From positions 1 through 64,000 of the forward strand of contig NZ_JAFIQX010000006.1 in assembly GCF_017356035.1 (NCBI RefSeq): a DNA stretch of 64,000 nucleotides. Reading direction: 5' to 3'. The position numbers and the translations under genes are program-made. Shown piece by piece: positions 4,236 to 30,123 of the stretch. This DNA is from Longitalea luteola. GTDB lineage: Bacteria > Bacteroidota > Bacteroidia > Chitinophagales > Chitinophagaceae. The notes beneath the pieces are model-generated. The model made no database searches and was not told where the DNA came from. It saw nothing but the letters and a program-made list of their open reading frames with translations. Numbering within the stretch: the stretch's first letter is position 1; every line of letters starts with the position of its first letter.

Positions 4236-4679
4236 TTAAGCTAAAGCAGGCAGTTTGGGAAGGGTTCGTCGCTTTTTACGCTCAAGATAAATACCCCAGG
4301 CAGATAATGCTACAAAAGCGCTATTGAATACAACATGTGCGCTCCACGACATTTCTTCAAGTATTCCGCCGCAAGAACACGGGATTTCGCTTCCGAACAG
4401 CAGCATGGCCGCTATATAAATAGTAAATAACGACATTACAACACAACAAGCATACAAGCCGGTGAGACGTAATGCCGGTATAGCCATAAAAGCGGCAATC
4501 AGCAGCTCACTGACAGGCACCCCCCAGGCTAATTCACTGGCAAAGGGCGCAATAAAGGGCGATTCTGAAAGTCCGAATTGAAAATTGTAATAGTCAAGCA
4601 ATTTGGCGGTAGCAGCGTACACAAAGAGGATAATGTTCAAAGTGCATATGATCCCCAAGGCCACATTACTCTTTTTCAT
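4236..4679 (-). CDS. MauE/DoxX-like redox-associated membrane protein
   Basis: A 147-residue inner-membrane protein with about four hydrophobic helices (roughly 7-25, 50-70, 74-96, 115-132) and a PCSCGG motif (Cys101, Cys103) followed by a conserved MSW-H segment. This CxC before the last helix is typical of Bacteroidota MauE-like proteins, a family linked to disulfide formation in exported proteins (MauE of methylamine dehydrogenase maturation). I chose ATG at 4679 because the 38 residues added by an upstream start are charged and unlike the family. A paralog with the same CSCGG and MSW-H elements lies at 20749-21231. It heads the minus-strand cluster that contains the kinase-LanC fusion. 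Confidence 0.82.
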   Translation of the reverse strand: MKKSNVALGIICTLNIILFVYAATAKLLDYYNFQFGLSESPFIAPFASELAWGVPVSELLIAAFMAIPALRLTGLYACCVVMSLFTIYIAAMLLFGSEIPCSCGGILEEMSWSAHVVFNSAFVALSAWGIYLERKKRRTLPKLPALA

Positions 4680-5221
4680 AGCATTGCAGGTTCTTAATGT
4701 TGACGAATAAGGTTTATTGCCCTGCCGTGCGACAGGGTGTTTATGCTTGCATGTTTTCCTTAAAAAACTATAATTATACGGTTGGGTTTTCATCAGGAAC
4801 GGAAATGCCGGTTCATTCCAATTTGGGATGGAATGGCATTATAACTATTACCAACCGGATCTTTGATGGGAGGTTAGAAGGAGTGTCGGGAGCTGGCTTT
4901 AACCTCTGTATATTATCTTACTGTAAAATTACAAAGGAATTTTATTTTCCAATGTTAAGTTTTTATCCGACATCGGTACGTTTAAAATGATTTACTAATT
5001 GTTTTACTGACAGTTTAATATTACACCCGCTATTAATGTAACTTTTTGTCAAAATCGAACGTCCGGTGTTTGTAAATAAGCAATAAAGTATTTCTGAAAA
5101 TAATTGTTACCGTTGCACATGTTCCAGGTAAACTGAAATGCATGTTTGTTAATATGTGTTCATATTTTCATAACAGTGCAATTTCATTCGTTAATATAAT
5201 TTGCACGTCTCTGTTATAGTT
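4680..5221. other. 541-bp divergent intergenic region with hairpins
   Basis: Separates the MauE-like gene (minus) from the ECF sigma gene (plus). It holds an extended imperfect palindrome at 4804-4840 (outer arms AATGCC/GGCATT, inner arms CATTCCA/TGGAATG) and a short CCCTG/CAGGG hairpin at 4720-4737. A possible -7-like element, TATAATTTG, ends at about 5202, close to the sigma start. I see no gene in it. Confidence 0.5.
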
Positions 5222-10974: not shown

Positions 10975-13659
10975 ATGAGATCTGTTTATACGCTAATCAT
11001 TGTATTATTCATTACACAGCTTTCTTTTGGTCAGGTTGCCCTTACACCTGTGATCTTTCCAAGGTATGTTCAGGGAGGCGGTACCAATTCAGCTAAAGTG
11101 CCTTTTGTATGCAGGGTTACTATTACCGGGTTGAACGCCAATACCACCTACCGGTACTACAACAGGTTTGTAACATCGATTACTGATCAGGGCAATGGCG
11201 AAGGCGTGTATTATCTGATCAAACCGAATGGCAGTTTATTCAGGGCGTCTTTTCCAAGCTTGTCGAGCGTCAGCAATAATGCCGGTGTACTTACCACCGA
11301 TGGCTCCGGATCATACACCGGCTGGTTCATTACTGAGCCTGGTTCTGGTGCAGCCTCTATCTTTGTGCCTAATACTGAAATTTATTTCCGCATAATCCTG
11401 AATGATGGTACCAGTTCATCTTCGCCTGTTCATCGCCCTACCGTTACCATTCCGGTAAAAGTGATCGATTTTGGTAGTGGCGCAACGGAAGGAACTGCCA
11501 TACGCAGCACACCGGTAACAGGCGGTACGGCCAGGAACTTCGTGTTTCTTTGGGATGTTACTGATCCTATAGGAGCGCAGCCGGTATCCGGAACCTATAT
11601 AGAAGCCGATGAAATTGATAACAGTTCCGGTTTGGGGTTTGCGTCCTTTTACGTCGACCATGTAAATAATAAGAGCCAGACATGGGGCACCATTATTCCC
11701 AATAACCTCCCCAACGGCATTAAAAGGATCAACCAGTACAGTGTAACCGGTGCCGTTGAAACAGGGTATAAAATTTCTACCAATAGCCTGTGGCCCGTGG
11801 AAGGGGGCGGCAAAGCCAGTACAGTTAATCCCAACGGCGGGTCAACAAATGTCATTGTATTAAATGGAGCAATCGCCCGGCTCGATGGCGCCAACCTCAA
11901 AACCGATCAAACCATTACATTTAATGCTTTAACTGCCAGAACATACGGCGACGATAACTTTGATGCGGGCGCAACAACTAGTGCAGGTTTGCCGCTAACA
12001 TATGCAAGCGACAATACCGCTGTAGCCGAAATTGTTACCGTAAATAACCAGATGCTGGTTGCCATTAAAGGAGCAGGTAATGCCAACATTACCGCCAGCC
12101 AGCCCGGCGATGATTTCTTTAACGCGGCCAGCCAGAAAGTGGAAGTTTTAACTGTTAATAAAGCGGAACTAACCGTCACTGCCGATGATCACCAGGTACT
12201 GCAGGGAGATCCCATTCCTGCGCTTACCGTAACTTATTCAGGATTTAAGAATGGTGATGACGCAGCGGATCTCAGCACACAGCCTGTTGCCACTACTACA
12301 GCCAGCCAGTCATCACCCGCTGGTGACTACGAGGTCAGACCGGATGGTGGTGCTGCTGCCAACTACGATTTCAAATATATATCGGGCAAGTTAACAATAG
12401 TGCCTTCGAAGCAACCGCAAACCATAACGTTTGCACCTGTTCCTGATAAAACCTATGGGGACGTTGCTTTTGATCCGGGCGCCCGCGCAGGGTCGGGTTT
12501 ACCCATTAAATATGTGAGCAGCAATACAGCAGTAGCCGATACTGCCAATGGCAGGGTCGTGATAAAAGGGGTTGGAACTACTACTATTACCGCCAAACAG
12601 GATGGCAACAGTGGCTGGCTCGCAGCTCCCGACGTAAGTGTTACGCTTACAGTAAATAGAGGCAAATTGACAATTACCGCAGAAAATAAAACACGGAAAG
12701 TGGGAGAGCCCAACCCAACCTTTACTTTACTTTATTCAGGATTTGTTTATGGAGAAACTCCTGCCGTGCTCACTGCACAGCCGGTGGCAGCTACCACTGC
12801 AGCTGTCAATTCTCCAGCCGGTACTTATAAAATTACCGTAAACGGCGCAGCAGCTGCAAATTATACGATTGATTATGTTGAAGGTGATTTGATAATAGAA
12901 CCACTCGCCGTTCAGACAATTACATTTACCGCATTTTCAGAAAAAAAATATGGGGATGCCAACTTCAGGCTCAATGCTTCGGCCAGCAGCAATTTGCCGG
13001 TCACTTTTAGCAGCAGTAATCCGGCAGTTGCTATTATCAGGAATGATTCACTCATCATTCTTACAGCAGGTACCAGCGTTATCACTGCTTCACAAAGTGG
13101 TAATGCCATTTGGGGACCTGCCAGCGCATCGCAAACCCTTACAGTGCAAAAAGCAAGGCTGATCATAAAAGCTGATACTTTGACTAAAAATGAAGGCCAA
13201 CCTGTTCCTGCACTTACTATTACTTATAGCGGATTTGTGAAGAATGAAGATGCAGGTGTATTGACCGCTTTACCAACGGTTACCACCACCGCTACCGCCA
13301 ATTCGGTACCGGGCAATTATCCCATTATCGTAAGTGGCGCTGCTGCCCTTAATTATTCGGTAGCGCAGTTGAACGGTGTTGTTATTGTACTGCCGGGGCA
13401 CGGGGCTGTACAGGATAATATGTTCGCTTATATCAGCAGGCCCGGTCAGTTACAGGTAAACATCTTTTCAGTGACCGGCGGCAAAGGTGTTATTCAGTTA
13501 TTCGACCTGAATGGAACCCGGCTGGTTAATGTAAATGTGGCGCTCGGCAAAGGGAATAACACATTTCAGGTGCCTGTAGGTAATGTAGCTCCGGGCATAT
13601 ATAGTGTGCGGACGGCTGTAGCCGGTGTGTTGCTGAAAACGAAATTGATCATACAATAA
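10975..13659 (+). CDS. T9SS-secreted protein with three Ig-like/MBG repeat pairs
   Basis: An 894-residue exported protein: signal peptide (1-20), an N-terminal domain of about 285 residues, three tandem repeat units starting near residues 311, 481 and 647, and a C-terminal T9SS sorting-like domain (~815-894, ending LLKTKLIIQ). Each unit begins with QTITF and a YGD motif (bacterial Ig-like) and ends with an MBG-type half (ITYSGF or VTYSGF, then NY). The N-terminal domain is shared with the protein at 16951-18372 and I know no name for it. A PorV-like gene follows 67 nt downstream, which supports T9SS export. The repeats probably form an extended stalk that presents the N-terminal domain at the cell surface. 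Confidence 0.87.
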   Translation: MRSVYTLIIVLFITQLSFGQVALTPVIFPRYVQGGGTNSAKVPFVCRVTITGLNANTTYRYYNRFVTSITDQGNGEGVYYLIKPNGSLFRASFPSLSSVSNNAGVLTTDGSGSYTGWFITEPGSGAASIFVPNTEIYFRIILNDGTSSSSPVHRPTVTIPVKVIDFGSGATEGTAIRSTPVTGGTARNFVFLWDVTDPIGAQPVSGTYIEADEIDNSSGLGFASFYVDHVNNKSQTWGTIIPNNLPNGIKRINQYSVTGAVETGYKISTNSLWPVEGGGKASTVNPNGGSTNVIVLNGAIARLDGANLKTDQTITFNALTARTYGDDNFDAGATTSAGLPLTYASDNTAVAEIVTVNNQMLVAIKGAGNANITASQPGDDFFNAASQKVEVLTVNKAELTVTADDHQVLQGDPIPALTVTYSGFKNGDDAADLSTQPVATTTASQSSPAGDYEVRPDGGAAANYDFKYISGKLTIVPSKQPQTITFAPVPDKTYGDVAFDPGARAGSGLPIKYVSSNTAVADTANGRVVIKGVGTTTITAKQDGNSGWLAAPDVSVTLTVNRGKLTITAENKTRKVGEPNPTFTLLYSGFVYGETPAVLTAQPVAATTAAVNSPAGTYKITVNGAAAANYTIDYVEGDLIIEPLAVQTITFTAFSEKKYGDANFRLNASASSNLPVTFSSSNPAVAIIRNDSLIILTAGTSVITASQSGNAIWGPASASQTLTVQKARLIIKADTLTKNEGQPVPALTITYSGFVKNEDAGVLTALPTVTTTATANSVPGNYPIIVSGAAALNYSVAQLNGVVIVLPGHGAVQDNMFAYISRPGQLQVNIFSVTGGKGVIQLFDLNGTRLVNVNVALGKGNNTFQVPVGNVAPGIYSVRTAVAGVLLKTKLIIQ

Positions 13660-13726
13660 CTACAAGCCCCTGTTTACTGAAATAAGGAGAATCAAACAAC
13701 GAATTAATTATCCAAAACATTTTGTG

Positions 13727-14836
13727 ATGAAGAAGTCATTTCAATCTGCTGCTTTTGTTTTGCTTACCTTACTAACCGGCGGACCTTTTTCGCTTCATGC
13801 GCAGGAAAATAGCACTATTAATATAACCACTACAGCTGTTCCTTTTTTGCGTATCTCACCAGATGCCCGCAGCGGAGGTATTGGTGATGCAGGCATCGCT
13901 TTAAGTCCCGACGCTAACAGCGTTTTCTATAACCAGGCCAAAATACCGTTTGCCAAAAAACGGTCCGACATAGCGGCTACCTATACGCCCTGGTTGAAAG
14001 AGGTAGCAGATAACATGTACCTCGCTACGCTGGCAGGTTATCATCAGCTCGATGAAGGACAGGCCGTATCTGCATCTTTGCGTTATTTCAATGCAGGTGA
14101 TATTCTGATGGTGGATTATAACGGGAATAAACTGCAAACCGTTCGTCCGCGCGAATTTGCTTTAGATTTCGGCTACAGCAGAAATTTATCTGATCAATTC
14201 GGAATTGGCGCTGCCGTGCGGTATATTTCTTCCAAACTCGTTACTGGCAATGTGAATGGCACCAATTACAAAGCCGGTAATGCTATTGCGGCCGACATTT
14301 CTGTATTTTACAATGGCGTTACTGAAAACGATCGCGGCTGGAGGGCCGGCCTGTCATTATCTAACCTGGGTTCCAGGATAGGGTATACCGATGATTCGAA
14401 CAATAAGGATTATTTACCTGCCAGTCTGGGTATTGGAGCGTCTTATACTGAAGTGTGGGATGAAGATAACAAAATGACCTTTGCGTTGCAGGCAGATAAA
14501 TTACTGGTGCCCAAAATTCCTGAAACAACAGAAGCCATGCCCGCTTACCGCGATAAAAGCGTTGTAGGCAGCTGGTTCGATTCATTTGATAATGGTGCTT
14601 TGCAATTGGCGTTTGGTGCCGAGTATGGCTTTAAAGACCAGTTGTTCCTGCGCATAGGGTACAACAGCAAATCTTATTCTTACGGCAACTGGCAATATGT
14701 GACCGCCGGCGCCGGGGTTCGGTTCAATATGGCAACGGTTAATTTTTCTTATCTCGTTCCTACTGGTGACAAAGTGAATAGAAATCCATTGAGCAATACA
14801 GTACGGTTAGGCCTGTTGTTTGGTATAGACAAGTAG
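13727..14836 (+). CDS. porV: PorV-like T9SS outer-membrane protein
   Basis: A 369-residue outer-membrane beta-barrel of the PorV/LptO (FadL-like) family. It has a signal peptide (~1-24) and, just after it, the family signature FLRISPDARSGGIGDAGIA. Alternating barrel strands follow, and the protein ends with LGLLFGIDK. PorV shuttles CTD-tagged cargo from the T9SS translocon to the attachment complex. ATG at 13727 is used; an adjacent GTG at 13724 is the other option. It lies inside a cargo locus rather than beside T9SS core genes, so it may be a dedicated paralog rather than the housekeeping PorV. Confidence 0.88.
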   Translation: MKKSFQSAAFVLLTLLTGGPFSLHAQENSTINITTTAVPFLRISPDARSGGIGDAGIALSPDANSVFYNQAKIPFAKKRSDIAATYTPWLKEVADNMYLATLAGYHQLDEGQAVSASLRYFNAGDILMVDYNGNKLQTVRPREFALDFGYSRNLSDQFGIGAAVRYISSKLVTGNVNGTNYKAGNAIAADISVFYNGVTENDRGWRAGLSLSNLGSRIGYTDDSNNKDYLPASLGIGASYTEVWDEDNKMTFALQADKLLVPKIPETTEAMPAYRDKSVVGSWFDSFDNGALQLAFGAEYGFKDQLFLRIGYNSKSYSYGNWQYVTAGAGVRFNMATVNFSYLVPTGDKVNRNPLSNTVRLGLLFGIDK

Positions 14837-20104: not shown

Positions 20105-20494
20105 ATGAAGTTGAATCTTCGAAGAGAAGATGTAGAAAAGTTACATCTGGTAAAAGCCATTATTGAAAGGGAGTACAGGCAACATTACACCAACCCTCAA
20201 TTAGCCAGGAAAGTAAGTACCAACGAGTACAAACTTAAACATGGATTCAAGCAAACGTTCCATGTGAGCCTGTATGAATTCCTTACTAACATTCGGATCG
20301 AAAAAGCCAAAGACCTGCTTGAATTTACAGAAGACCCGATTGCTCGGGTCGCCAACAATGTCGGCTTTCCGGATGGTGGCAGTTTTTGCAAAAGATTTAA
20401 ACAGTGCACGGGCTTTTCACCATTGAAGTACCGGCAGATGCGGCTTGCGGTCAGCCGCGAACGGGATAATGAGATGCCGATATTGCGAAAGTAA
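20105..20494 (+). CDS. AraC-type HTH regulator (DNA-binding domain only)
   Basis: A 129-residue protein that is essentially a stand-alone AraC/XylS DNA-binding domain with two HTH motifs (NPQLARKVSTNEYKLKHGFKQ and IARVANNVGFPDGGSFCKRF) and the family end CTGFSPLKYR. No ligand-binding or dimerisation domain is attached, so it may respond to abundance or to a partner. It lies 254 nt upstream of the MauE-like gene on the same strand. The spacer contains a strong promoter (20536-20564), so it probably regulates, rather than shares, the MauE transcript. Confidence 0.87.
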   Translation: MKLNLRREDVEKLHLVKAIIEREYRQHYTNPQLARKVSTNEYKLKHGFKQTFHVSLYEFLTNIRIEKAKDLLEFTEDPIARVANNVGFPDGGSFCKRFKQCTGFSPLKYRQMRLAVSRERDNEMPILRK

Positions 20495-20535
20495 AAAATC
20501 CCGATTCGTCAATTTTTCATCCCGAATTGACACAT

Positions 20536-20564
20536 TTTGCTGCGTAACTTGTATTGTAATTTTG
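20536..20564 (+). promoter_or_regulatory. Bacteroidota-type promoter for MauE operon
   Basis: TTTG at 20536-20539, a 17-nt spacer, then TAATTTTG at 20557-20564 followed by C. This fits the consensus TTTG-N17-23-TAnnTTTGY. Transcription would start near 20569, leaving a leader of about 180 nt before the MauE-like gene. Confidence 0.65.
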
Positions 20565-20565
20565 C

Positions 20566-20720
20566 ACCGGCCAGCCGGTTGCGATCAGGAGAGCCCTGAC
20601 CCTTTTTGTCCCCGCTATATGAAAATTAATCCTGATCATAGAACGTGTAATTAATGCTATCATTTTTTTAGAGATTTCATTTAGCCATTTGCCGCCACGG
20701 CAGGTGCAGCAATCTCTTTT
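20566..20720 (+). promoter_or_regulatory. Structured leader with terminator-like hairpins
   Basis: Three hairpins lie between the promoter and the MauE-like start. ACCGGC/GCCGGT is at 20566-20579. TCAGG/CCTGA at 20585-20599 is followed by CCC and TTTTT. A larger hairpin at 20670-20717 has closing arms AGAGATT/AATCTCT and an inner TGCCG/CGGCA stem, and ends in TTTT. The second and third look like terminators and suggest attenuation, though either could simply end the AraC-type transcript. Confidence 0.45.
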
Positions 20721-20748
20721 GTTGTAATTATTTACCAATATAAATGGT

Positions 20749-21231
20749 ATGAAAGCATATAATGTTAACGGTAACCTGATCAAACAGTCTGCCCCCGGGC
20801 CAATTAGCCAATGGAGAAAAAGACATTTATGGATCCAGATAATCGCTAGCCTATTGCTCTTATTGTTTTCCTATACAGGTGTAAACAAGGTTACGGAATA
20901 TGCCAAATTTAAAGACCAATTAGGCAAGTCGCCGTTTCTGGAACAACATGCAGCCACAATTGCCTGGTTTATTCCTGCAACCGAATGCGTCATTGTTTTG
21001 CTATTGCTGTTTAAAATGACAAGGCTGGCCGGTTTGTTTGCCTCGTTTGCGCTCATGCTGGCATTTACCATCTACATATACATGATGTTGCATTACAGTT
21101 ACTATGTGCCTTGTTCGTGCGGGGGAGTACTGGCCATGATGAGTTGGACGCAACATTTCTGGTTCAATGTGGTGTTTACATTACTGGCATTTTCAGGTAT
21201 TTTATTGCATGTTGTGCAACCCCAAAAATAA
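20749..21231 (+). CDS. MauE/DoxX-like redox-associated membrane protein (second copy)
   Basis: A 160-residue inner-membrane protein with a short polar N-terminus and four hydrophobic helices (~28-45, 68-88, 92-115, 137-155). It carries PCSCGG (Cys122, Cys124) followed by MMSWTQH, the same signature as the paralog at 4236-4679. The family is linked to disulfide chemistry on exported proteins. The propeller-like gene begins 7 nt downstream, and the four-cysteine exported peptide at 22402-22638 is its obvious candidate substrate. The upstream promoter and leader hairpins point to tight control. Confidence 0.83.
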   Translation: MKAYNVNGNLIKQSAPGPISQWRKRHLWIQIIASLLLLLFSYTGVNKVTEYAKFKDQLGKSPFLEQHAATIAWFIPATECVIVLLLLFKMTRLAGLFASFALMLAFTIYIYMMLHYSYYVPCSCGGVLAMMSWTQHFWFNVVFTLLAFSGILLHVVQPQK

Positions 21232-21238
21232 AGTACTA

Positions 21239-22279
21239 ATGAAACGAATACATACGTTCCTGCTCGTAAGTATTACCGCTGCCGTTTTTCTGGCAATGGC
21301 TTTTCTAAAGGCATCTGTAAAACAAATGAATGACGCTGGTAATGGATTTAAACGTAAACAGGCTCCTTTCTCAATAACGAAAATAGCAGAACGGCGGTTC
21401 TATGTTCCGTTGCGGGATGTAGCCGGAGTAAGTGGGGACAGCATTTTTATTGTTACAGCCAGGCCCAATGAGATCATTCTCACCAATAGCGCATTGACTA
21501 AAGAACAGATGATTGATCTGCCTATTACAGCCCATAATAAACTGGCTGGAAATTTTACCGTGCGGCTTAATTATCCGGATCTGTACATTTTTGGATCGAA
21601 CGTGCCTTGTGTTATCCGTTATGATCTGATAGTTGAAAAAGAAACTATTTATCCTGTTAGCCGGGCTTTCAGCCGGAACGCTTTAATAGATACTAACACC
21701 GTGATCATCCGCGGTTTCGACTCAAGCTTTAAGGATGAAAATATAAGTACCATCAATCTACTTACAGGGGCTCGTACAGTAGAAAAAGACCTGACTGACA
21801 GAACTGATGGTGGCGGTTTTGTAACAGATGGTATGCTGCATTTTGACAAGAAGACCAATACGATCGTATACCATCATTTTTATTCAAACAAGATCCTGTA
21901 TGCTGATACCGGTCTGCAATTGCTACATAAAGGCACGGGTATCGATACGTTTAATACATACACAGCCAAAGCAGTAGCCACATCTACGGCGAAAGGCACT
22001 TATTTTTCTTTTACGGCTCCTCCTAAGTTGTTAAGTAATGGCAGTTGTGTGAGTGAAGGCAGGCTGTATATCCATTCTAGATTGAAGGCCGACAATGAAA
22101 CAAGCCGCCGGTTTATGAATAGTATAGTGATAGATGTTTACGACATAAATACCAGAAGTTATACCGGAACGCTGTATGTTCCTTCATTACCGGGAAAACG
22201 CCTGGTAAAGTTCAATGTATTGCACGATCGGTTTTATGCTATTTACGAAAACCAGCTGGTTGTTTATAGTATCAGATAA
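21239..22279 (+). CDS. Uncharacterised exported propeller-like protein
   Basis: A 346-residue protein with an N-terminal signal or membrane anchor (residues ~5-25, FLLVSITAAVFLAMAFL). The rest is beta-rich with repeating blade-like units (DSIFIVTARPNEI, VIRYDLIVEKE, INLLTGAR, NKILYADTGLQLL, YAIYENQLVVYSI), consistent with a beta-propeller facing the periplasm. I see no catalytic motif. I chose ATG at 21239, 7 nt after the MauE-like stop; a start further upstream would overlap that gene by about 20 codons. Proteins of this shape often sit between MauE and small Cys-containing peptides in Bacteroidota, which suggests a shared maturation role. That is inference. Confidence 0.72.
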   Translation: MKRIHTFLLVSITAAVFLAMAFLKASVKQMNDAGNGFKRKQAPFSITKIAERRFYVPLRDVAGVSGDSIFIVTARPNEIILTNSALTKEQMIDLPITAHNKLAGNFTVRLNYPDLYIFGSNVPCVIRYDLIVEKETIYPVSRAFSRNALIDTNTVIIRGFDSSFKDENISTINLLTGARTVEKDLTDRTDGGGFVTDGMLHFDKKTNTIVYHHFYSNKILYADTGLQLLHKGTGIDTFNTYTAKAVATSTAKGTYFSFTAPPKLLSNGSCVSEGRLYIHSRLKADNETSRRFMNSIVIDVYDINTRSYTGTLYVPSLPGKRLVKFNVLHDRFYAIYENQLVVYSIR

Positions 22280-22346
22280 ACGATTTGTTATAACAAACAG
22301 GCGAAGCCGAAAACCTGGGAAAATAGAGTAGGCACATTACTTCAAA

Positions 22347-22379
22347 AAGACAGGTCGCAACCCCTTACATGCCTGTCTT
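22347..22379 (+). promoter_or_regulatory. Hairpin upstream of the Cys-peptide gene
   Basis: AAGACAGG and CCTGTCTT form a perfect 8-bp stem with a 17-nt loop, 23 nt before the peptide start. The absence of a U-run argues for an RNA-stability or processing element that raises expression of the peptide relative to the upstream genes. Confidence 0.4.
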
Positions 22380-22401
22380 ATTAACCATTAAATAGAAATT
22401 T

Positions 22402-22638
22402 ATGAAACGGTTTAAAATTAACATGCTGACACTGGCTCTGTTGGCCGGTGTAACCAGCGCATTTGCCAAGGCCGGTCCCTGGGATTCCTGTGCGGTAGAT
22501 ACAAGAGGAGAACTCGACCTCCTTTGTCCCCCGGGCAATCCCATATGCTGCAGGTTCTATTCTTACACCTGGCTTCGTGATACCAATGAGACGTTTCCCG
22601 GCGGCACATTATATCCCGGTACTTATACTCCCTTATAG
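22402..22638 (+). CDS. Small exported four-cysteine peptide (DUF6520-like)
   Basis: A 78-residue precursor: signal peptide MKRFKINMLTLALLAGVTSAFA with a cleavage site near residue 22, then a ~56-residue mature peptide with Cys30, Cys42, Cys49 and Cys50 and a Pro/Gly/Tyr-rich tail. Size, signal and cysteine-bearing body resemble the small DUF6520-type proteins of Bacteroidota. The vicinal Cys49-Cys50 pair is notable. It is the last gene of the MauE cluster and the natural substrate for oxidative folding by the MauE-like protein. Whether it is a toxin, a signal or a structural peptide cannot be read from the sequence. Confidence 0.75.
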   Translation: MKRFKINMLTLALLAGVTSAFAKAGPWDSCAVDTRGELDLLCPPGNPICCRFYSYTWLRDTNETFPGGTLYPGTYTPL

Positions 22639-22653
22639 CCGTATAGTTCATTT

Positions 22654-22701
22654 ACGCGTAAAAGCCTGCATCTTATATTGCAGGCTTTTGCGTGTTTCTT
22701 T
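22654..22701. terminator. Bidirectional terminator
   Basis: Arms around AAAAGCCTGCA and TGCAGGCTTTT extend through ACGC/GCGT. The hairpin lies between two convergent genes, with T-rich sequence on the right for the plus transcript and A-rich sequence in the stem serving the minus transcript. Confidence 0.75.
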
Positions 22702-24047
22702 TAATTTTGCTCCATTGGATTTAACAGCACTTCTTGTGCTGGTATCGGGTATATAAACCTTAGATCCCTGGCAGGTAGAGTGATCAACCGATTATCAATT
22801 TTGCGGGTAAGTGTAATGTTTTTATCTTTTACATTGAGTCTTTTTATGTCTATCCAACGTGCGCATCTAAAGATCATCTCTTTTCGCCGTTCATTCAATA
22901 TTGAATCCAACGCTGCTTCTTTACCAGTTACATGAAACGGTTGAAAAGGCACCGTTACTTTCCATCTCTTTTTCATTAATGTATTTAAGTCTTCAATGGC
23001 TTCTTTGACCTGGTCCTTGCGGGCGTAACATTCAGCGCGGATCAACAATATTTCAGCGGTTGTAATGCCGCAAAACTTAAGCGTGGAACCGGAATAAGAA
23101 CCCTTAAATATCTTATAGTTGTTATTTCCATTGGTAAAAAACAACTCTTTTCTAAGGTCATTGTCGTTATAGCTTGCATATAACAATGTATCAACAGGGC
23201 AATTATTACCATTATTAAATATTGCGGCAGCACCCATTGTCGCATAAAATATTGTTTCTTCATTGAACTGTCTGAAAGGTATGCCTGAATTGCGAACGCC
23301 ATTATAATCAATAAGAGTATCGCTTTTTAATAAGACTTGGTTGGCGAAATCCCAGGCTTTCTCTGTATCACCCATCGATAAAAATACCTTGGCTAGTAAT
23401 GCTTCAGCCGCCAACAAAGAGGGACGAGTAGGTATTGGGGTTTTGGCTGGTAATAGTGTTTTTGCTTCCAGTAGATCACGGATAATATGGTTATAGGTCT
23501 CCTGGACGGTGGATCTGTTTACCAATGTTTTGGCATTGGAAGAGAGCCTCAGCGGTAAACCAGGATCTGTAGAAGCGGTACGATTATCATATGCTTTACA
23601 AAAAAGCTGTGCTAATAGCCAGTTTGCATACGCCCGGTGAAAATGCGCCTGGCCGCGCACAAATCTTGCTTCGGCTGTGTCTGTTTCGTCTTTAAGTGTT
23701 CGGACTTTCTCGAGCGCAATATTTGAAAAAAGGATTGTACTAAAACAGGAATTCCAATCGTTTACGTCGGCTCCTAGGAATGGATCTTTTTCCCAGATAT
23801 AGCCTAGTTGGCATACGGGGTCGAGATTCTTCCATATAACCGTAGGCGTGAAAAAATCATCAGCACCCAATTCGAGCAGAAAAGGACGGTTGGCATTCAT
23901 TACTGATTGGTTGTCTAATAATCTTTGCAGATCTGCTATTGATTCTGCAGTGGCCTGCGCTGAAGAAGGTTTGTTATCCAGCTTTTTTAAGCAGGCTTGC
24001 AAAAACAGGATAAGAAAAAGAGCAGCAGTAATTTTTAAAAATTGCAT
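22701..24047 (-). CDS. SusD/RagB-family surface lipoprotein
   Basis: A 448-residue SusD-type lipoprotein with lipobox LFLQAC (Cys ~15), a helical TPR-rich body (ARFVRGQAHFHRAYANWLLAQLF is typical of the family core) and the C-terminal end IYPIPAQEVLLNP common to SusD proteins. It caps the SusC barrel and binds ligand at the cell surface. ATG at 24047 is chosen since it starts directly before the signal peptide. It follows the SusC-like gene by 19 nt. No glycoside hydrolase lies beside it, so the ligand is unclear and may be peptide-like. Confidence 0.93.
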   Translation of the reverse strand: MQFLKITAALFLILFLQACLKKLDNKPSSAQATAESIADLQRLLDNQSVMNANRPFLLELGADDFFTPTVIWKNLDPVCQLGYIWEKDPFLGADVNDWNSCFSTILFSNIALEKVRTLKDETDTAEARFVRGQAHFHRAYANWLLAQLFCKAYDNRTASTDPGLPLRLSSNAKTLVNRSTVQETYNHIIRDLLEAKTLLPAKTPIPTRPSLLAAEALLAKVFLSMGDTEKAWDFANQVLLKSDTLIDYNGVRNSGIPFRQFNEETIFYATMGAAAIFNNGNNCPVDTLLYASYNDNDLRKELFFTNGNNNYKIFKGSYSGSTLKFCGITTAEILLIRAECYARKDQVKEAIEDLNTLMKKRWKVTVPFQPFHVTGKEAALDSILNERRKEMIFRCARWIDIKRLNVKDKNITLTRKIDNRLITLPARDLRFIYPIPAQEVLLNPMEQN

Positions 24048-24066
24048 GTAGTAGTATTTGAAGAAA

Positions 24067-27000
24067 TTAAAAATCGATCTTACCGCCAAGTGTAAATGTT
24101 CGTTCCGGACCAACGCCGTTGTTAAAATCAGGGTCTAACCCCAGTTTATTTTTTCTCCACAATATTGCTATGTTGTTTATATACAGATAGATCTGTAAAT
24201 GCGAAATGGATAGCTCCTGTAATTTAATAGTATTGAAATTATAGGCCAGTCGAATGTCCTGGAGGCGTATATTATCACCACTATGTACGTTCACTGACGA
24301 ATATGAAAAGAATTCATCGCGCATAGGCGACTGAGGCGGATAGACCATGGAAGGTACGCTTGTATTATCTCCCGGTTCCGTCCATCTTTTGTAATAATCC
24401 CGGTGCATATAACCTGAATTATATAACGCAAAGTAGGAGATAGTGGTAGCCCTGAATACATAGCCTAACTTATATTCTATGTTTGCCGACAGTGTGAATT
24501 GCTTGTAATAGAACGTATTCATAATAGCGCCAAATGCAACGGGCTGTGCGGGCCCATTGTAGTCCATGTCGTTGATCGAAGCAGTGATCAATTTTTCATA
24601 ATTCGTACTTAGTGTCTTTCCTTCATATCCTCTGGGATCTCCGGTTAAAGGGTCTAAACCGCCCCATTTGAAACTGTAAACAGCCGATAACGGCTTGCCG
24701 ACAACCGGTGTATGAATATCGTTAAAACCACCGGTTGACTGCGCCACTCCATGCCCGGTATAAGTTTGTTCATAAGCCGTCATTTTATCTCTATTATAGC
24801 TGAATAATATTTGTGTATTCCAGCTGAACCTGCCTTTTATGTTATTGCTGAATAATTCAATATCTATTCCATGGCTTTTCATACCGGCTGCATTGGTCAT
24901 AAAACCCTGCATTCCCAATCCGGCGTATCCGGCACTGGGCGCCAGCCTGCTAAGGCCGATCAGATTGTCACATTTTGTAAAATAAAGTTCGATCCGGCCC
25001 GACAGGCGTTTATTCAGCATCTCGAAATCAAGACCTGCATTCAAATGGCTTTTTCTTTCCCAGCCGAGATCGGGATTGGGTGGATTATTAATGGATGACC
25101 AGAGAAAACCGGCATTATTGGGTGTAGCGGGTGCCTTATATGTCTGCAAAGCAGGAATATTAACATTAACATTGCCCATATAGCCGAAACTGCCTCTTAG
25201 CTTTAATTTGGATATCCACCGGCACTGCCGGAAATACTTTTCTTCACTTAACAGCCAGGAAACGCCTGTTGACCATAATGGAACATATTTATTATTAAAA
25301 TCAGTGCCCAGGATATTCGCCATATCTATACGGCTGCTGGCACTTACTGAGTACCTGTTTTTATACGTATAGGCCGAATTGATCAGGAAAGAGGTGGTGG
25401 CATCGTTTGTCCAACCAGATCTGTTAACAAACGGGACCAAAAGGCTATCGCCACTATTCGGATATGCAGGATATCTTTGCAGATAATTAAGGGAAGACCT
25501 GCTGGTGCTATTGCCTGCATCGTAATCATATTGCCTGTTGGTATTGAATGTCATTTTTACTTCACCGCTTTCAGCCCCCGCCATTACCGACAAAAAATGT
25601 TTACGAAATGACTTTTCGAATTTTGCAAGGCTTCTCACCCTTATACTTTTGATCGTTATTTTTGTTTCATCATAAATATCACCCTGAGGCACGGGATATT
25701 TATCTTTTTCTGAATTACCCAGCGGATTGTATAAGGAGTTGATCAGTTGCCGCGTATAGTAAGCAGATAGTTTATGGAACTGTTCGTTATTGGTATGCTG
25801 ATTCACGTATTGAAAACTTCCCTGCAGGCTGAGTCCGGGAATGATCTTGAAAATGATCTTGGCATCAAAGGTCAATTTGTCTGAATAACTGTTGTAATCG
25901 GCGTCCCGAAGGTCTTGTAAAGGGCGGTAATGCGGATCTACTGCCCATGCTATTGTATCTTTAACATACAACGGCAGGTTTCCTGATACAGCCAACGCCT
26001 GATGCTGATCATTGGCCAGCGCTGTGTAAGAGGATAAACTTCGGTCGCCCAGGGTAACTGAATCTTTCCCTCCATTATTATAAGTTGTCTTTACGCCTGT
26101 ATAATTGAGTCCTGCCTGCACCTCGAGTTTTTTCCAGAAAGAAAAGGTATTATTCGAGTTCAATGTATATCGTTTGAATTCATTATGGGTCAGAACAGGT
26201 ACATTCCTGTCGAACCCCGCCGAAAACTGATAAGTATTCCGGGAACCACCACCTGTGATGTTAACGGCGTACTGCTGGTTCCAGCTTCTTCGATAGAAAT
26301 ATTTATGGAAATCTTTTCCTACATCATTTGATCTCAATGCATCTATCAAATGCGCGGAATCTGTGCCGGTGATCAGGCCTGTTCGCCGTTTCTGCAGGAT
26401 CTCAACCACCAGGGGAACTGCCGGAGGGTAAGGATTTTTCAATATGCCATCAAAGAATCCTTTATTGAACAGGTCAATTTCAAGATCAATGAGATCCGTC
26501 GCGTGTATAAAGTCAGGACGCTTAAAGAGCGCCGGCCTTTCACTCATGGTGATGTTTGCATTCAACTCCAGCTGTAATGGCTGACCATTTTTACCTTTTT
26601 TGGTTGTTATCACAATTACACCGTTGCTGCTAAAAGCTCCCCAGACAGCCGCTGCATCCGCATCTCTTAGAATGGTTATACTTTCCACATCATTTGGGTT
26701 AATGTTATTTATATCTCCGGTGTAAGGAAAATCGTCAACAATGATCAGGGGAAATGTTATGGCTGAAACAGTGCTTCGGCCTCTGATACTAAAAGGTGAT
26801 TCCTTTGAATTACCGACGTTTGACCTTACAAGGAAACTGCTCGTGACCCCGGGCAATCTGTCTATTGTGTTCGTTGATATACGCCTGTTCAGCAGTTCAT
26901 TATCTATCTTAACAAATGAGCCGTTTGTTCTTTCTTTTGGTAGTGACTGGTAACCGGTGTTTACGATAACAGTAATCAGTTCCTGGCTTTGCATTTCCAG

Positions 27001-27543
27001 TTTTATAACCTTGTTGTTCAGGCCGGCAGCTTTCATTATTACAGGTGAATGATTTACAAAAGAGATCTTTATCATAGCATTACTGTCAACTCCTTTAAGT
27101 ATAAAATATCCCAGACTATCGGTAGTAGTTGCATGTTCAGTGCCTATTACTGTCACATTCGCGTTCAGGAGGCTGTTGTCGTTTTGATCAGTAACCTTTC
27201 CGTTAATGGTAAGCGCTGTACTGGCGCGCATTGGTACCGGTGAAGGCAGGCGCTTATTCTGTGCAGTGATATAAATTATCTTCTCAATTATATTATGAAC
27301 GAGCGATTTATCTTTTAAATACATTTCCAAAAACGCCTCCAAAGGCATACCTCGTACGTCTATGTTGGACGGTGGAATATCCCGGACGATTTCTGCATTT
27401 ACAAAAACCACATAGTCGGTTTGCCGGGCTATTTCCCCAGACACCTTTAGGAACGAAGCATTCTTATCCTGCATCGTGATGGTTTGAGCAAGGCAGATGG
27501 ACGCCAGCGTCAGAAATGTCAATACCAGTAAAATCTTTTTCAT
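24067..27543 (-). CDS. SusC/RagA TonB-dependent transporter with STN domain
   Basis: A 1158-residue outer-membrane transporter: signal peptide (1-20), STN domain (~22-92, with DIPPSNIDVRGMPLEAFLEM), carboxypeptidase-regulatory-like domain (~110-190, INGKVTDQNDNSLLNANVTV), plug (~200-325, with WGAFSSNGVIVITTKKG) and a long barrel ending TLGGKIDF. The STN domain couples it to the FecR encoded upstream at 28090-29373. Together with the SusD gene 19 nt downstream it forms one SusCD import unit. ATG at 27543 begins the signal peptide. Confidence 0.94.
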   Translation of the reverse strand: MKKILLVLTFLTLASICLAQTITMQDKNASFLKVSGEIARQTDYVVFVNAEIVRDIPPSNIDVRGMPLEAFLEMYLKDKSLVHNIIEKIIYITAQNKRLPSPVPMRASTALTINGKVTDQNDNSLLNANVTVIGTEHATTTDSLGYFILKGVDSNAMIKISFVNHSPVIMKAAGLNNKVIKLEMQSQELITVIVNTGYQSLPKERTNGSFVKIDNELLNRRISTNTIDRLPGVTSSFLVRSNVGNSKESPFSIRGRSTVSAITFPLIIVDDFPYTGDINNINPNDVESITILRDADAAAVWGAFSSNGVIVITTKKGKNGQPLQLELNANITMSERPALFKRPDFIHATDLIDLEIDLFNKGFFDGILKNPYPPAVPLVVEILQKRRTGLITGTDSAHLIDALRSNDVGKDFHKYFYRRSWNQQYAVNITGGGSRNTYQFSAGFDRNVPVLTHNEFKRYTLNSNNTFSFWKKLEVQAGLNYTGVKTTYNNGGKDSVTLGDRSLSSYTALANDQHQALAVSGNLPLYVKDTIAWAVDPHYRPLQDLRDADYNSYSDKLTFDAKIIFKIIPGLSLQGSFQYVNQHTNNEQFHKLSAYYTRQLINSLYNPLGNSEKDKYPVPQGDIYDETKITIKSIRVRSLAKFEKSFRKHFLSVMAGAESGEVKMTFNTNRQYDYDAGNSTSRSSLNYLQRYPAYPNSGDSLLVPFVNRSGWTNDATTSFLINSAYTYKNRYSVSASSRIDMANILGTDFNNKYVPLWSTGVSWLLSEEKYFRQCRWISKLKLRGSFGYMGNVNVNIPALQTYKAPATPNNAGFLWSSINNPPNPDLGWERKSHLNAGLDFEMLNKRLSGRIELYFTKCDNLIGLSRLAPSAGYAGLGMQGFMTNAAGMKSHGIDIELFSNNIKGRFSWNTQILFSYNRDKMTAYEQTYTGHGVAQSTGGFNDIHTPVVGKPLSAVYSFKWGGLDPLTGDPRGYEGKTLSTNYEKLITASINDMDYNGPAQPVAFGAIMNTFYYKQFTLSANIEYKLGYVFRATTISYFALYNSGYMHRDYYKRWTEPGDNTSVPSMVYPPQSPMRDEFFSYSSVNVHSGDNIRLQDIRLAYNFNTIKLQELSISHLQIYLYINNIAILWRKNKLGLDPDFNNGVGPERTFTLGGKIDF

Positions 27544-28089
27544 AATTATTTTTTGGTTCTTTTTTGCCAATATTTTGATGATTTATAAAGTTTATAGATT
27601 TATGAGTTTTAGATAATATTGCCGTTATTCCATTCAACAGACGGCCGGGCGCCAGTTGTCTTCAACTGTGCCAACCCCGCATGATGATACCGACCGGTTC
27701 TAAACGGGGGATAAGCGTACTCAAGGTTTAATGAGGAAGGTTAATGGCAGGAAAGTTCAATGGTTAATGCAACTGAGGTTGTTGCTTATTTCTTAGCCAT
27801 TCAACATGATAATAGTCACTGCTTGAGAAGGAGTGGTTTTAGTAAATTGTCTCTGTGCAGGTACGCATCAGGTCACTTTACCGTAAACATATTGAGCCGT
27901 GTATTGTAAAATACTTCAGCATCCTTCTGTTTGACGCAGTTTTTTTTCTAGTGAACAGGTTCTTACTGGAATAAGGCTCTCATTATGTGCATACTTTGCA
28001 CACCTGATCGGTGAAAGGCCTGGCCTTCAACCAGAAGGCCGAGTTGGGACAAGGAATTGTAAACACACATCGAAGCTGACAGCATAAGA
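27544..28089. other. 546-bp spacer between FecR and SusC
   Basis: No gene is apparent on either strand. It contains a GGCCTTC/GAAGGCC hairpin at 28022-28040, just after the FecR gene in the minus direction and without a U-run. The AT-rich 27544-27620 part may hold the SusC promoter, but no clear TAnnTTTG box is seen. Confidence 0.4.
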
Positions 28090-29373
28090 TTAAGGTTTGA
28101 CAATTATTCTTCTGCCTTCCAGGGTAAAATGCACACTGCTTGTTTCCTCCAGGACCATAAGCACACCGGTGATCGTCGTATTACGATGCATCTCCCCGAA
28201 AAATTTTTCTTCTGGTACTGACGGGTAATAAACAACTTCCAGATCATACCAGCGGACAATTTGCCGCATGACTGTTTTCAGATCGCTATGGTTAAAGTTG
28301 AATTTTCCATCTTTCCAGGCTACCGCCTGGGCAATATCTACATCATTGAGTATTTGAATGAACTTTTTATTTGTCTGGGTTTGCGCAGCCAATGAAATAC
28401 GGGCTTGCTGTCCCTCGTAAATATGCGCCTGTTCCTGTGCCGCCATTACTTTTATCTTTCCTTCGAGCAGTGTTACTTTAATGGCGGGCTCATCGGAATA
28501 AGCGTTGATATTGAAATGTGTACCTAACACTTCTACACGCCTTCGCTGGCTTTCGACTGTATTTCCGGCTGTAGAAATATCAACAAATAAGGGGATCTTT
28601 TTCCCGTCTGGCCCCGAAGCTATGCTGGCCGCTTCAAAATAAACCTCACCTGTAACCTCAACGGTTCTGTCATGTTGGCTAAAGGCGATCGGATAACGGA
28701 TCGATGAAGCCGCATTGAGCCACACGCGGGAGCCATCAGGCAGCTGCAGCTGATACGTTTCTCCTTTATTGGTAGAAAGCGTATTATACTGCATTTCGCC
28801 ATCATTCAAGGCCGGTCCATCATACTTTAATTGCCCGTTATAATTATTAATAACCGTATTTCCCTGCTTCGCAATGGCTCCCTGGCTGGCACTATCGAGG
28901 GAAATCTTTCGTCCGTCAGCTAGTGTTAACGTTGCTTTTTGTGAACCCGGTGGTATATCAGTTGTAGTTACCACCGGATTATTCGTAGCTGAAGGAATCT
29001 TCCAGTCTGTATTCCTCCAAAAATAGGTTCCCATCAGGAGCAAGCCAATAGAAGCCGCGGCATATACCCAGGGCCGCCAGGCCAGCCAGTTGATCTTCGG
29101 GATGCTGATTATCCTGTTCTTTTTTTGGCCACTATTATTAGCTTCATGTATTTTATTCCATATCAGCTCCCTGTTCATTTCAAGTCTGTTTTTATAATAA
29201 TCCAGTCTGGCCAACTGTTCCTCCATAAAGCCCTGTGCCGTTATTCTCTCAAAGAACAACCTGTTCTCATTCACTAATAGCCATTCATCGAGTATAGCCT
29301 GCTGTTCTTCGGTCAGTTCATCGAGGAAATAGTTTACGATTATTTCGTTGATTATCTTATGTTCTAAGTACAT
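28090..29373 (-). CDS. FecR-type anti-sigma factor
   Basis: A 427-residue protein: cytoplasmic helices (1-80), transmembrane helix (~100-118), an extra ~60-residue beta segment, the FecR domain (~180-300, YQLQLPDGSRVWLNAASSIRY, VLGTHFNINAY) and a C-terminal DUF4974-like domain (~335-425). It would sense the STN domain of the downstream SusC (24067-27543) and control the sigma factor encoded at 29551-30123. ATG 29373 is preferred to TTG 29382. A terminator-like hairpin separates it from the sigma gene, which would lower the FecR to sigma ratio unless FecR has its own promoter. Confidence 0.93.
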   Translation of the reverse strand: MYLEHKIINEIIVNYFLDELTEEQQAILDEWLLVNENRLFFERITAQGFMEEQLARLDYYKNRLEMNRELIWNKIHEANNSGQKKNRIISIPKINWLAWRPWVYAAASIGLLLMGTYFWRNTDWKIPSATNNPVVTTTDIPPGSQKATLTLADGRKISLDSASQGAIAKQGNTVINNYNGQLKYDGPALNDGEMQYNTLSTNKGETYQLQLPDGSRVWLNAASSIRYPIAFSQHDRTVEVTGEVYFEAASIASGPDGKKIPLFVDISTAGNTVESQRRRVEVLGTHFNINAYSDEPAIKVTLLEGKIKVMAAQEQAHIYEGQQARISLAAQTQTNKKFIQILNDVDIAQAVAWKDGKFNFNHSDLKTVMRQIVRWYDLEVVYYPSVPEEKFFGEMHRNTTITGVLMVLEETSSVHFTLEGRRIIVKP

Positions 29374-29504
29374 TATGCACAACTTTGCTTGAATAAATAG
29401 TTTGATGCACTAATCGTTGCCAACACCTGTTCATAAAGGGTGCTATATATATAACCATATCGAAGCAGGCATTTGTACTAGTCAATGAAGAAAAAAAACA
29501 AAAA

Positions 29505-29550: not shown

Positions 29551-30123
29551 TTAATTTTTTAAGAAATGTAATGAGACCAGCAGTAATACGATCATTAATT
29601 CCCTTTCTGTAAAAACCTTCCTCAAATGTTTAATTGCTTTGTCATAATGATTCTTTACAGTGTTGGGAGATATTCCTAGTTTAGCAGCTACTTCATTCCT
29701 ATTCAACTGATTAAAATGTATAAGTTTGAAAACTTTACCACATTGTTCCGGTAATTCTTCAATAGCATGATATAAGAGGTCGGTGATCTCAAATAGCCGG
29801 GCGTCGCGATCTTCGAACCATTGCGTTGAATGCCGGGTAGCTAATTCAAACCTTTTGAAAAGTTTACGATGTAAAGAATTGATTTTTAAAAAGGAGAAAC
29901 AGTTATCTTTCGTGATCTTTAAAAGTAATGCTCTGGCTTCATCAATGCTGCGAATTTCCAATTCTTTTCGCCAAAATGTAGTAAAGCTCTCCGATACAAT
30001 GTCTTCTGCAGTTTCACGATCACTAACAAGGGTTCGGGCAAAGTTGCATAACCCCGGTTGTAACGCGGTAACAAGGTCATTGAATTGACGCTCCCGATTT
30101 TTATTCTTCGGATTGTTTATCAT
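29551..30123 (-). CDS. ECF RNA polymerase sigma factor
   Basis: A 190-residue ECF sigma factor. Region 2 shows LCNFARTLVSDRETAEDIVSES and FTTFWRK. Region 4 shows LPEQCGKVFKLIHFNQ and the HTH NEVAAKLGISPNTVKNHYDKA. The tail is hydrophobic (LMIVLLLVSLHFL). It heads the minus-strand locus sigma-FecR-SusC-SusD and is expected to drive SusCD expression when released from FecR. ATG at 30123. Confidence 0.92.
   Translation of the reverse strand: MINNPKNKNRERQFNDLVTALQPGLCNFARTLVSDRETAEDIVSESFTTFWRKELEIRSIDEARALLLKITKDNCFSFLKINSLHRKLFKRFELATRHSTQWFEDRDARLFEITDLLYHAIEELPEQCGKVFKLIHFNQLNRNEVAAKLGISPNTVKNHYDKAIKHLRKVFTERELMIVLLLVSLHFLKN

What the first reader, a model, noticed from the sequence alone, without database searches (positions are those of the whole stretch)
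20105..22638. AraC-MauE-propeller-four-Cys peptide module
A membrane protein with a CxC motif, a propeller-like exported protein 7 nt downstream and a 78-residue exported peptide with four cysteines (two adjacent) form a compact unit with its own regulator. It is the clearest candidate here for a dedicated oxidative-folding and export system for a small secreted peptide of unknown activity. A MauE paralog with a different partner set lies at 4236-4679.
Basis: partly seen in the sequence, partly recalled or inferred. Interest (0 to 1): 0.72.

Follow-up and report, generated by a model that had tools for sequence, protein, structure and literature searches.

The report
Disulfide peptide, MauE and propeller cassette
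The three-gene unit is real and belongs to a gene cassette found widely in the Bacteroidota that makes a small exported peptide whose cysteines nearly always come in even numbers, beside a membrane redox protein, a propeller protein and usually an outer-membrane transporter; what the peptide does is still unknown.

Summary
In detail: AraC-type regulator, MauE (PF07291), a 346-aa membrane-anchored beta-propeller and a 78-aa exported-type peptide with four cysteines lie in line at 20105-22638. It is no local curiosity. In 41 propeller-found loci MauE lies beside the propeller in 39, a small Cys peptide in 38, a convergent SusC/SusD pair in 36; in 18 of them MauE and propeller are one fused protein. 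All 17 above-cutoff DUF6520 matches in 247 genomes lie within 1.5 kb of MauE. Of 114 distinct module peptides with cysteine, 112 have an even number (distant control clusters 12 of 32). Two relatives are 93.6% identical up to the peptide's signal-sequence codons; mature peptide, propeller, thioredoxin-like protein and SusCD then differ together, one set matching a third genome. Best reading: MauE is the shared thiol-disulfide engine, the propeller its peptide-specific dock, SusCD the peptide's outer-membrane partner. Oxidative folding is supported indirectly; a dedicated export system is not (Sec-like leader, no exporter seen). Redox direction, disulfides and peptide activity are untested. My nine literature searches found no description.

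The parts
20105..20494 (+). AraC-type DNA-binding protein, 129 aa, HTH only
   Evidence: PF12833 4e-20; AraC-type gene upstream on the same strand in 20 of 41 module loci
20749..21231 (+). MauE, 160 aa, 4 TM, periplasmic PCSCGG loop
   Evidence: PF07291 4.1e-30; topology; present in 39 of 41 loci
21239..22279 (+). beta-propeller with N-terminal membrane anchor, 346 aa
   Evidence: AlphaFold2 pLDDT 91.2, Foldseek PDB; 22-sequence family alignment A1; fused to MauE in 22 of 80 named loci as ORFs over 400 aa and in 18 of 41
22402..22638 (+). exported-type peptide, 78 aa, Cys 30/42/49/50; leader about 1-22
   Evidence: sub-threshold DUF6520 match (12.9 bits)
22654..22695 (.). terminator-like stem of 17 pairs between the peptide gene and SusD
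   Evidence: consensus match only (5 such sites in the stretch against 3.0 in shuffles)
22701..24113 (-). SusD-like outer-membrane lipoprotein (ORF from TTG; true start may be inside)
   Evidence: PF14322 3.2e-29, PF07980 9.8e-10; convergent SusD in 36 of 41 loci
24067..27570 (-). SusC-like TonB-dependent transporter with about 100 extra N-terminal residues (STN-like by my own profile only)
   Evidence: Plug 1.3e-10, CarbopepD_reg_2 9.4e-9, no Pfam STN hit
28090..29382 (-). FecR-type anti-sigma factor
   Evidence: PF04773 4.2e-16, PF16344 1.2e-15
29551..30123 (-). ECF-type sigma factor
   Evidence: Sigma70_r4_2 3.3e-11, Sigma70_r2 6.2e-6

Best explanation
A specificity cassette for one disulfide-containing exported peptide. 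SHOWN by sequence: the small peptide, MauE and the propeller form one unit across many Bacteroidota; MauE and propeller are one protein in many genomes; the peptide's cysteines come in even numbers; mature peptide, propeller, thioredoxin-like protein and SusCD can be replaced together while MauE and the peptide's leader stay. INFERRED: (1) the peptide leaves the cytoplasm by Sec; (2) the propeller, anchored beside MauE on the periplasmic side, holds its own cognate peptide; (3) the CxC of MauE passes electrons so that the peptide's cysteines become the right disulfides (with a TlpA-like thioredoxin protein in one branch); (4) the mature peptide is handled at the outer membrane by the neighbouring SusCD pair (release, capture or sensing), which in this window and in part of the relatives is wired to FecR and an ECF sigma factor. 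The peptide's final job is not known.
For: MauE beside the propeller in 39 of 41 loci, the other 2 (L161, L170) reaching a contig end; Cys peptide called in 38 of 41; SusD and SusC convergent in 36 of 41. MauE and propeller in one ORF over 400 aa in 22 of 80 named loci and in 18 of 41; the fused model has five helices long enough for TM segments, CxC between the third and fourth, then the propeller. 17 of 17 above-cutoff DUF6520 matches within 1.5 kb of MauE. Even Cys: 44 of 46 clusters near the module against 12 of 32 clusters far from it; 40 of 40 in the 41-locus set (two called ORFs dropped, both even). Cassette replacement L082/L094/L184 with the break at the signal-peptide codons. Distance correlations given MauE distance, 55 loci: propeller-mature peptide 0.28, propeller-SusD 0.42, propeller-leader only 0.12. 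Thiol partners: TlpA-like gene in 13 of 23 unfused loci; MauE plus a thioredoxin-like gene plus Cys peptides also cluster in this genome without the propeller. Precedent: a paper reports mauE homologs in 3 Streptomyces candidate RiPP families and that MauE has been speculated to form disulfides (PMC7794033, passages read).
Against: No redox or binding assay. The direction of electron flow cannot be read from sequence; a TlpA-like partner fits reduction as well. SusCD is missing in 5 of 41 loci and is absent from several MauE-peptide clusters of this genome. Propellers of the family without MauE beside them exist (L126: peptide and propeller, no MauE; L125: propellers only). Odd Cys counts occur: 2 of 114 in the module sets, one MauE-linked peptide of this genome (L018, 5 Cys), a 3-Cys ORF in L122 and 2 of 6 NVEALA peptides. 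SusCD genes are very common in these genomes (recalled), which inflates neighbourhood counts. The cassette replacement with a sharp break rests on one clear pair.
Confidence: 0.55

Rival explanations
1. Antagonistic peptide cassette: the peptide is a disulfide-stabilised toxin against close kin, MauE-propeller matures it or gives immunity, and SusCD is its receptor or uptake route; swapping follows arms-race selection.
For: Joint replacement of peptide, propeller and SusCD; fast mature-peptide change in some Niastella-type pairs (L047/L053: mature dN 0.70, propeller 0.20, MauE 0.09); location beside mobile-element genes in 22 of 80 named and 9 of 40 unnamed loci; several peptide genes in one cluster.
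Against: In many Chitinophaga pairs the mature peptide is as conserved as the propeller (dN 0.01-0.30); no dedicated immunity gene recognised; long-standing presence at one chromosomal site in Niastella (window and L042).
Confidence: 0.2
2. Uptake or redox-scavenging system: SusCD imports a thiol or peptide nutrient, the TlpA-like protein or the S9 peptidase processes it, MauE feeds electrons to the reductant, and the small Cys protein is a periplasmic or outer-membrane accessory of the transporter rather than a secreted product.
For: TlpA-like gene (13 of 23 unfused loci) or S9 prolyl-oligopeptidase-type gene (18 of 18 fused loci) in the SusCD block, never both; S9 assignment by Pfam for one member.
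Against: Does not by itself explain why mature peptide and propeller are replaced while the leader and MauE stay, nor MauE-peptide clusters without SusCD.
Confidence: 0.2
3. Unrelated neighbours: the four genes are together by accident of local gene order.
For: SusCD and AraC-type genes are abundant in such genomes (recalled).
Against: Gene fusion, recurrence in many genera, and joint replacement.
Confidence: 0.02

Closest known systems
DUF6520 (PF20130) small Bacteroidota proteins
   Same: Leader, size and four-Cys plan of many module peptides; 17 of 17 above-cutoff matches lie beside MauE
   Different: The window peptide itself scores 12.9 bits, cut-off 25.4; no function is recorded for the family and my search for its name found no paper
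MauE/MauD maturation of methylamine dehydrogenase
   Same: MauE family membrane protein with CxC; proposed disulfide role; thioredoxin-like partner in some loci
   Different: A tethered propeller and a small exported peptide instead of a dehydrogenase subunit; no mau gene set seen in the neighbourhoods read
NVEALA (PF14055) peptide plus propeller-like lipoprotein pairs of Bacteroidales
   Same: Small leader-bearing Cys peptide followed by a gene of about 340-390 aa in tandem pairs (L150, L151)
   Different: No MauE in those stretches; NVEALA not found in the own genome; those partner proteins were not matched by my propeller profile
6-bladed propellers DUF5128 (PF17170) / TolB_like (PF15869)
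   Same: Fold; my propeller profile finds such proteins beside MauE and Cys peptides in Bacteroidales-type loci
   Different: The window propeller itself has no Pfam match
FecI-FecR-STN TonB-dependent signalling
   Same: Sigma, FecR, SusC, SusD in order on one strand next to the peptide
   Different: No Pfam STN match for the window SusC; the ligand is not known

Membership tests
MauE (PF07291) | profile score over the curated cut-off | tested here: met
   105.2 bits, cut-off 27
MauE (PF07291) | thiol-disulfide function on a Cys-rich partner | not testable with these tools
   needs a redox assay
DUF6520 (PF20130) | profile score over the curated cut-off, window peptide | tested here: not met
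   12.9 bits, cut-off 25.4
DUF6520 (PF20130) | same gene neighbourhood as DUF6520 members | tested here: met
   17 of 17 above-cutoff members beside MauE
NVEALA peptides (PF14055) | profile match | tested here: not met
   no match in the own genome; none for the window peptide
DUF5128/TolB_like propellers | profile match of the window protein | tested here: not met
   no match; fold agrees
Double-glycine-leader bacteriocins (bacteroidetocin type; recalled) | GG-type leader and peptidase-ABC exporter | tested here: not met
   leader read by eye is Sec-like, ending ...TSAFA; no ABC exporter among the genes of the unit
Methylamine dehydrogenase (mau) system | MauA/MauB subunits in the genome | not tested
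   not searched for
Secreted disulfide peptide | even number of mature cysteines | tested here: met
   112 of 114 distinct module peptides with Cys; distant control clusters 12 of 32
FecI-FecR-STN transducer | sigma, FecR and STN-bearing TonB receptor | tested here: inconclusive
   sigma and FecR met; STN over cut-off only in L078 and L093 among 5 SusC tested

The most novel reading that the evidence does not exclude
A peptide communication or exchange system of the Bacteroidota: an oxidised exported peptide is the ligand of the SusCD transporter encoded opposite it, which in one branch reports through FecR and an ECF sigma factor; mature peptide, propeller and receptor are exchanged between strains as one specificity cassette, partly on mobile elements, with MauE as the shared maturation engine.
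Probability: 0.18. Interest if true: 0.88.

Novelty: new variant of a known kind. Interest (0 to 1): 0.62.

Why it matters
A family of small proteins without known function (DUF6520 and its unlisted relatives) gets a constant set of partners, a testable chemistry (disulfides) and a testable partner map (propeller and SusCD swap together with the mature peptide). If the peptide is a signal or a weapon, this would be a peptide system spread through a phylum for which I recall few such systems, partly on mobile elements. It would also give MauE, known from one enzyme's maturation, a broader role as a peptide-maturation engine.

Tried and rejected
Tried without result: PHROGs for propeller, peptide and MauE (none useful); PDB sequence searches with the propeller, peptide and MauE profiles (none; two matches at E 0.37 and 0.48, to the leader of lipoproteins, rejected); viral contigs with MauE (3 stretches, none a relative); plasmid records with the propeller (no match); literature searches for DUF6520, NVEALA, MauE with several terms, SusC/TlpA/propeller, small cysteine peptides, peptide pheromones, and the Pfam names (no description of this system; PMC7794033 read in passages only, all others seen as listings).

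Considered and rejected: that every MauE of the phylum belongs to this system (MauE is in 217 of 247 genomes; several lie in other settings, L128-L133 and L140); that the window peptide is a plain DUF6520 member (score below cut-off); that the unit is a phage or plasmid feature. The 78 of 80 named loci with a propeller is biased, because the query came from propeller-linked MauE and only the best 80 of 328 relatives were kept; I therefore rest on the 41 loci found through the propeller. These are a part: the window, 20 of the 21 other rows, and 20 of 23 strong rows outside the own genome (left out: G205, G259:C4, G415; G205 agrees, G415 = L126 has peptide and propeller but no MauE; G259:C4 not read). 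Set overlap: 7 identical peptides occur in both peptide sets. Rows dropped before the Cys counts: ORFs with a lipoprotein box (6 near, 19 far), one propeller fragment (L043), and in the 41-locus set the L184 149-aa ORF (MauE itself) and an overlapping 67-aa ORF in L190, both even. Of the 7 DUF6520 matches below cut-off, 3 lie beside MauE; one in the own genome (C22, L153) is an unrelated Cys-free protein with no MauE near, the other 3 were not followed. The profiles for FecR, sigma and STN were built from proteins that include the window's own, so their hits in the window are by construction; Pfam was used for the window.
Full report
What is there. MauE is a clear PF07291 member. The 346-aa protein has no Pfam or NCBIfam match, but an AlphaFold2 model from 22 relatives has mean pLDDT 91.2 and pTM 0.88, and among the 50 PDB matches listed many are WD40/propeller chains. 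Hydropathy puts the CxC loop of MauE and the propeller on the periplasmic side. The peptide has a Sec-like leader (read by eye and by a crude hydropathy rule, not by a dedicated predictor).

Own genome. The query MauE finds 10 copies at E <= 0.001 (the Pfam profile finds 14 matches). Small leader-bearing Cys peptides lie in the same gene cluster for 9 of the 10 copies (8 of 9 loci), up to about 4.3 kb away; the exception is the paralog at 4236. A second propeller copy (30% identity) lies beside the C4 copy, in the order MauE, peptide, propeller. Four further clusters lack the propeller and two kinds of partner recur: SusCD (L018, L020) or a thioredoxin-like protein with an unassigned membrane protein (L016/L152, L017, L019).

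Recurrence. In 195 genomes of the family 17 have a propeller match; in 247 genomes of the phylum 30 do at E <= 1e-5, 18 of them strongly (below 1e-30). I read 41 loci found through the propeller (window plus 40; selection told in Tried and rejected). MauE: 39 of 41. Cys peptide: 38 of 41 (lacking: L161, which is cut, L163, and L168, where a 2-Cys ORF is visible in the overlapping L033). SusD and SusC convergent: 36 of 41. AraC-type gene upstream on the same strand: 20 of 41. In 80 named loci (Niastella, Chitinophaga, Pedobacter, Chryseobacterium, Flavobacterium, Aequorivita, Dyadobacter and others, a biased set) the propeller is beside or fused to MauE in 78 and a peptide with two or more mature cysteines is called in 72.

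Fusion. One ORF over 400 aa holds both MauE and propeller in 22 of 80 named loci, chiefly Flavobacteriia genera but also Draconibacterium and a few MAGs, and in 18 of 41. A model of a fused protein (L105; mean pLDDT 84.9, pTM 0.64) has long helices at 5-32, 48-70, 72-99, 116-139 and 145-177 followed by the propeller strands, with the CxC at 105/107. Fusion and adjacency together make a physical MauE-propeller pair very likely.

The SusCD block. Beside the peptide unit, on the other strand and convergent, lies SusD-SusC. It carries a TlpA-like gene in 13 of 23 unfused loci and an S9 peptidase-like gene in 18 of 18 fused ones, never both (20 of 22 fused named loci have the S9-like gene). In this window SusC is followed by FecR and an ECF sigma gene. 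By profiles built partly from the window's proteins, FecR follows on the same strand in 15 of 41 and an STN-like N-terminus is found in 16 of the 36 SusC; Pfam confirms STN over cut-off in L078 and L093 but not in the window, L042 or L116.

Cysteine parity. Peptides were called without regard to cysteine. Near the module, counts after residue 20 are 2 (15), 4 (59), 6 (1), 8 (5), 7 (1), 1 (1) and 0 (1); of 46 clusters (50% identity) with cysteine 44 are even. Leader-bearing small ORFs more than 2 kb away give 12 even of 32 clusters. In the 41-locus set 40 of 40 are even. Exceptions elsewhere are given under evidence against. Parity is what disulfide pairing predicts; it does not show disulfides.

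Cassette replacement. L082 and L094 share 93.6% identity over 6.3 kb including MauE; the match stops at L082:8673, within a codon or two of the end of the peptide's leader (gene start 8606). Beyond it the mature peptide (0.36 identity), propeller (0.37) and SusD (0.55) differ. L094's downstream set is instead colinear with L184 over 8 kb at 76%, including an extra 479-aa gene. Which of the two received the foreign set is not decided. Weaker cases with conserved MauE and divergent propeller, peptide and SusD are L064/L091 (one strain), L079/L113 and L101/L102. Across 55 loci, distances of propeller with mature peptide (0.28) and with SusD (0.42) remain correlated given MauE distance; propeller with leader is lower (0.12). 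These permutations do not fully remove shared ancestry.

Mobility. At least one of six mobile-element genes (RteC, relaxase, MobC, two Tra-type families, an HTH gene) lies in the fetched flank of 22 of 80 named and 9 of 40 unnamed loci (RteC, relaxase and the Tra-type families by Pfam; in L046 and L105 only the HTH gene). In Niastella the unit lies in a conserved chromosomal order (window and L042).

Wider family. My propeller profile also reaches proteins carrying DUF5128 or TolB_like beside MauE and Cys peptides in other families of the phylum (L122, L123, L124, L127). NVEALA peptides (G425) precede genes of similar size to the propeller but without MauE, and those genes were not hit by my profile; the link to NVEALA is therefore an analogy.

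Judgement. Ordinary parts, an unusual and very constant assembly. What it works like: MauE-type disulfide maturation with a built-in substrate dock. What it is a member of: MauE (met); the peptide is a DUF6520-like relative, not an accepted member. The step from maturation to purpose (signal, weapon, transporter accessory) is open.

Noticed in passing
window 1584-3731 (-) and 4236-4793 (-): A kinase-LanC-like protein (LANC_like 1.5e-25, Pkinase 4.7e-23) lies beside the MauE paralog; a homolog (31% over 666 residues) lies directly upstream of a MauE-peptide-propeller unit in L154.
   Followed up: partly
L016/L152, L017, L019 (own genome): A second kind of cluster: MauE, thioredoxin-like protein, a membrane protein of about 515 aa without Pfam match, a glycosyltransferase-like protein and one to three peptides with 4-6 cysteines.
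   Followed up: partly
L128, L129, L130, L132, L133, L140: MauE genes in a recurring setting without Cys peptides, mostly next to a protein of 168-200 aa; probably a separate role.
   Followed up: no
L150, L151: Tandem NVEALA peptide plus lipoprotein-size gene pairs, six peptides in one genome, 2 of 6 with an odd number of mature cysteines.
   Followed up: partly
L064 and L091: Two fused genes of one Chryseobacterium strain share 83% DNA identity over about 505 nt covering the MauE part while the rest is far more divergent; gene conversion or strong constraint.
   Followed up: partly
window 10975-13659 (+): Large protein with MBG_2 repeats (1.3e-55) and a sub-threshold type IX sorting tail, next to a PorV-like gene at 13724-14836.
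   Followed up: no
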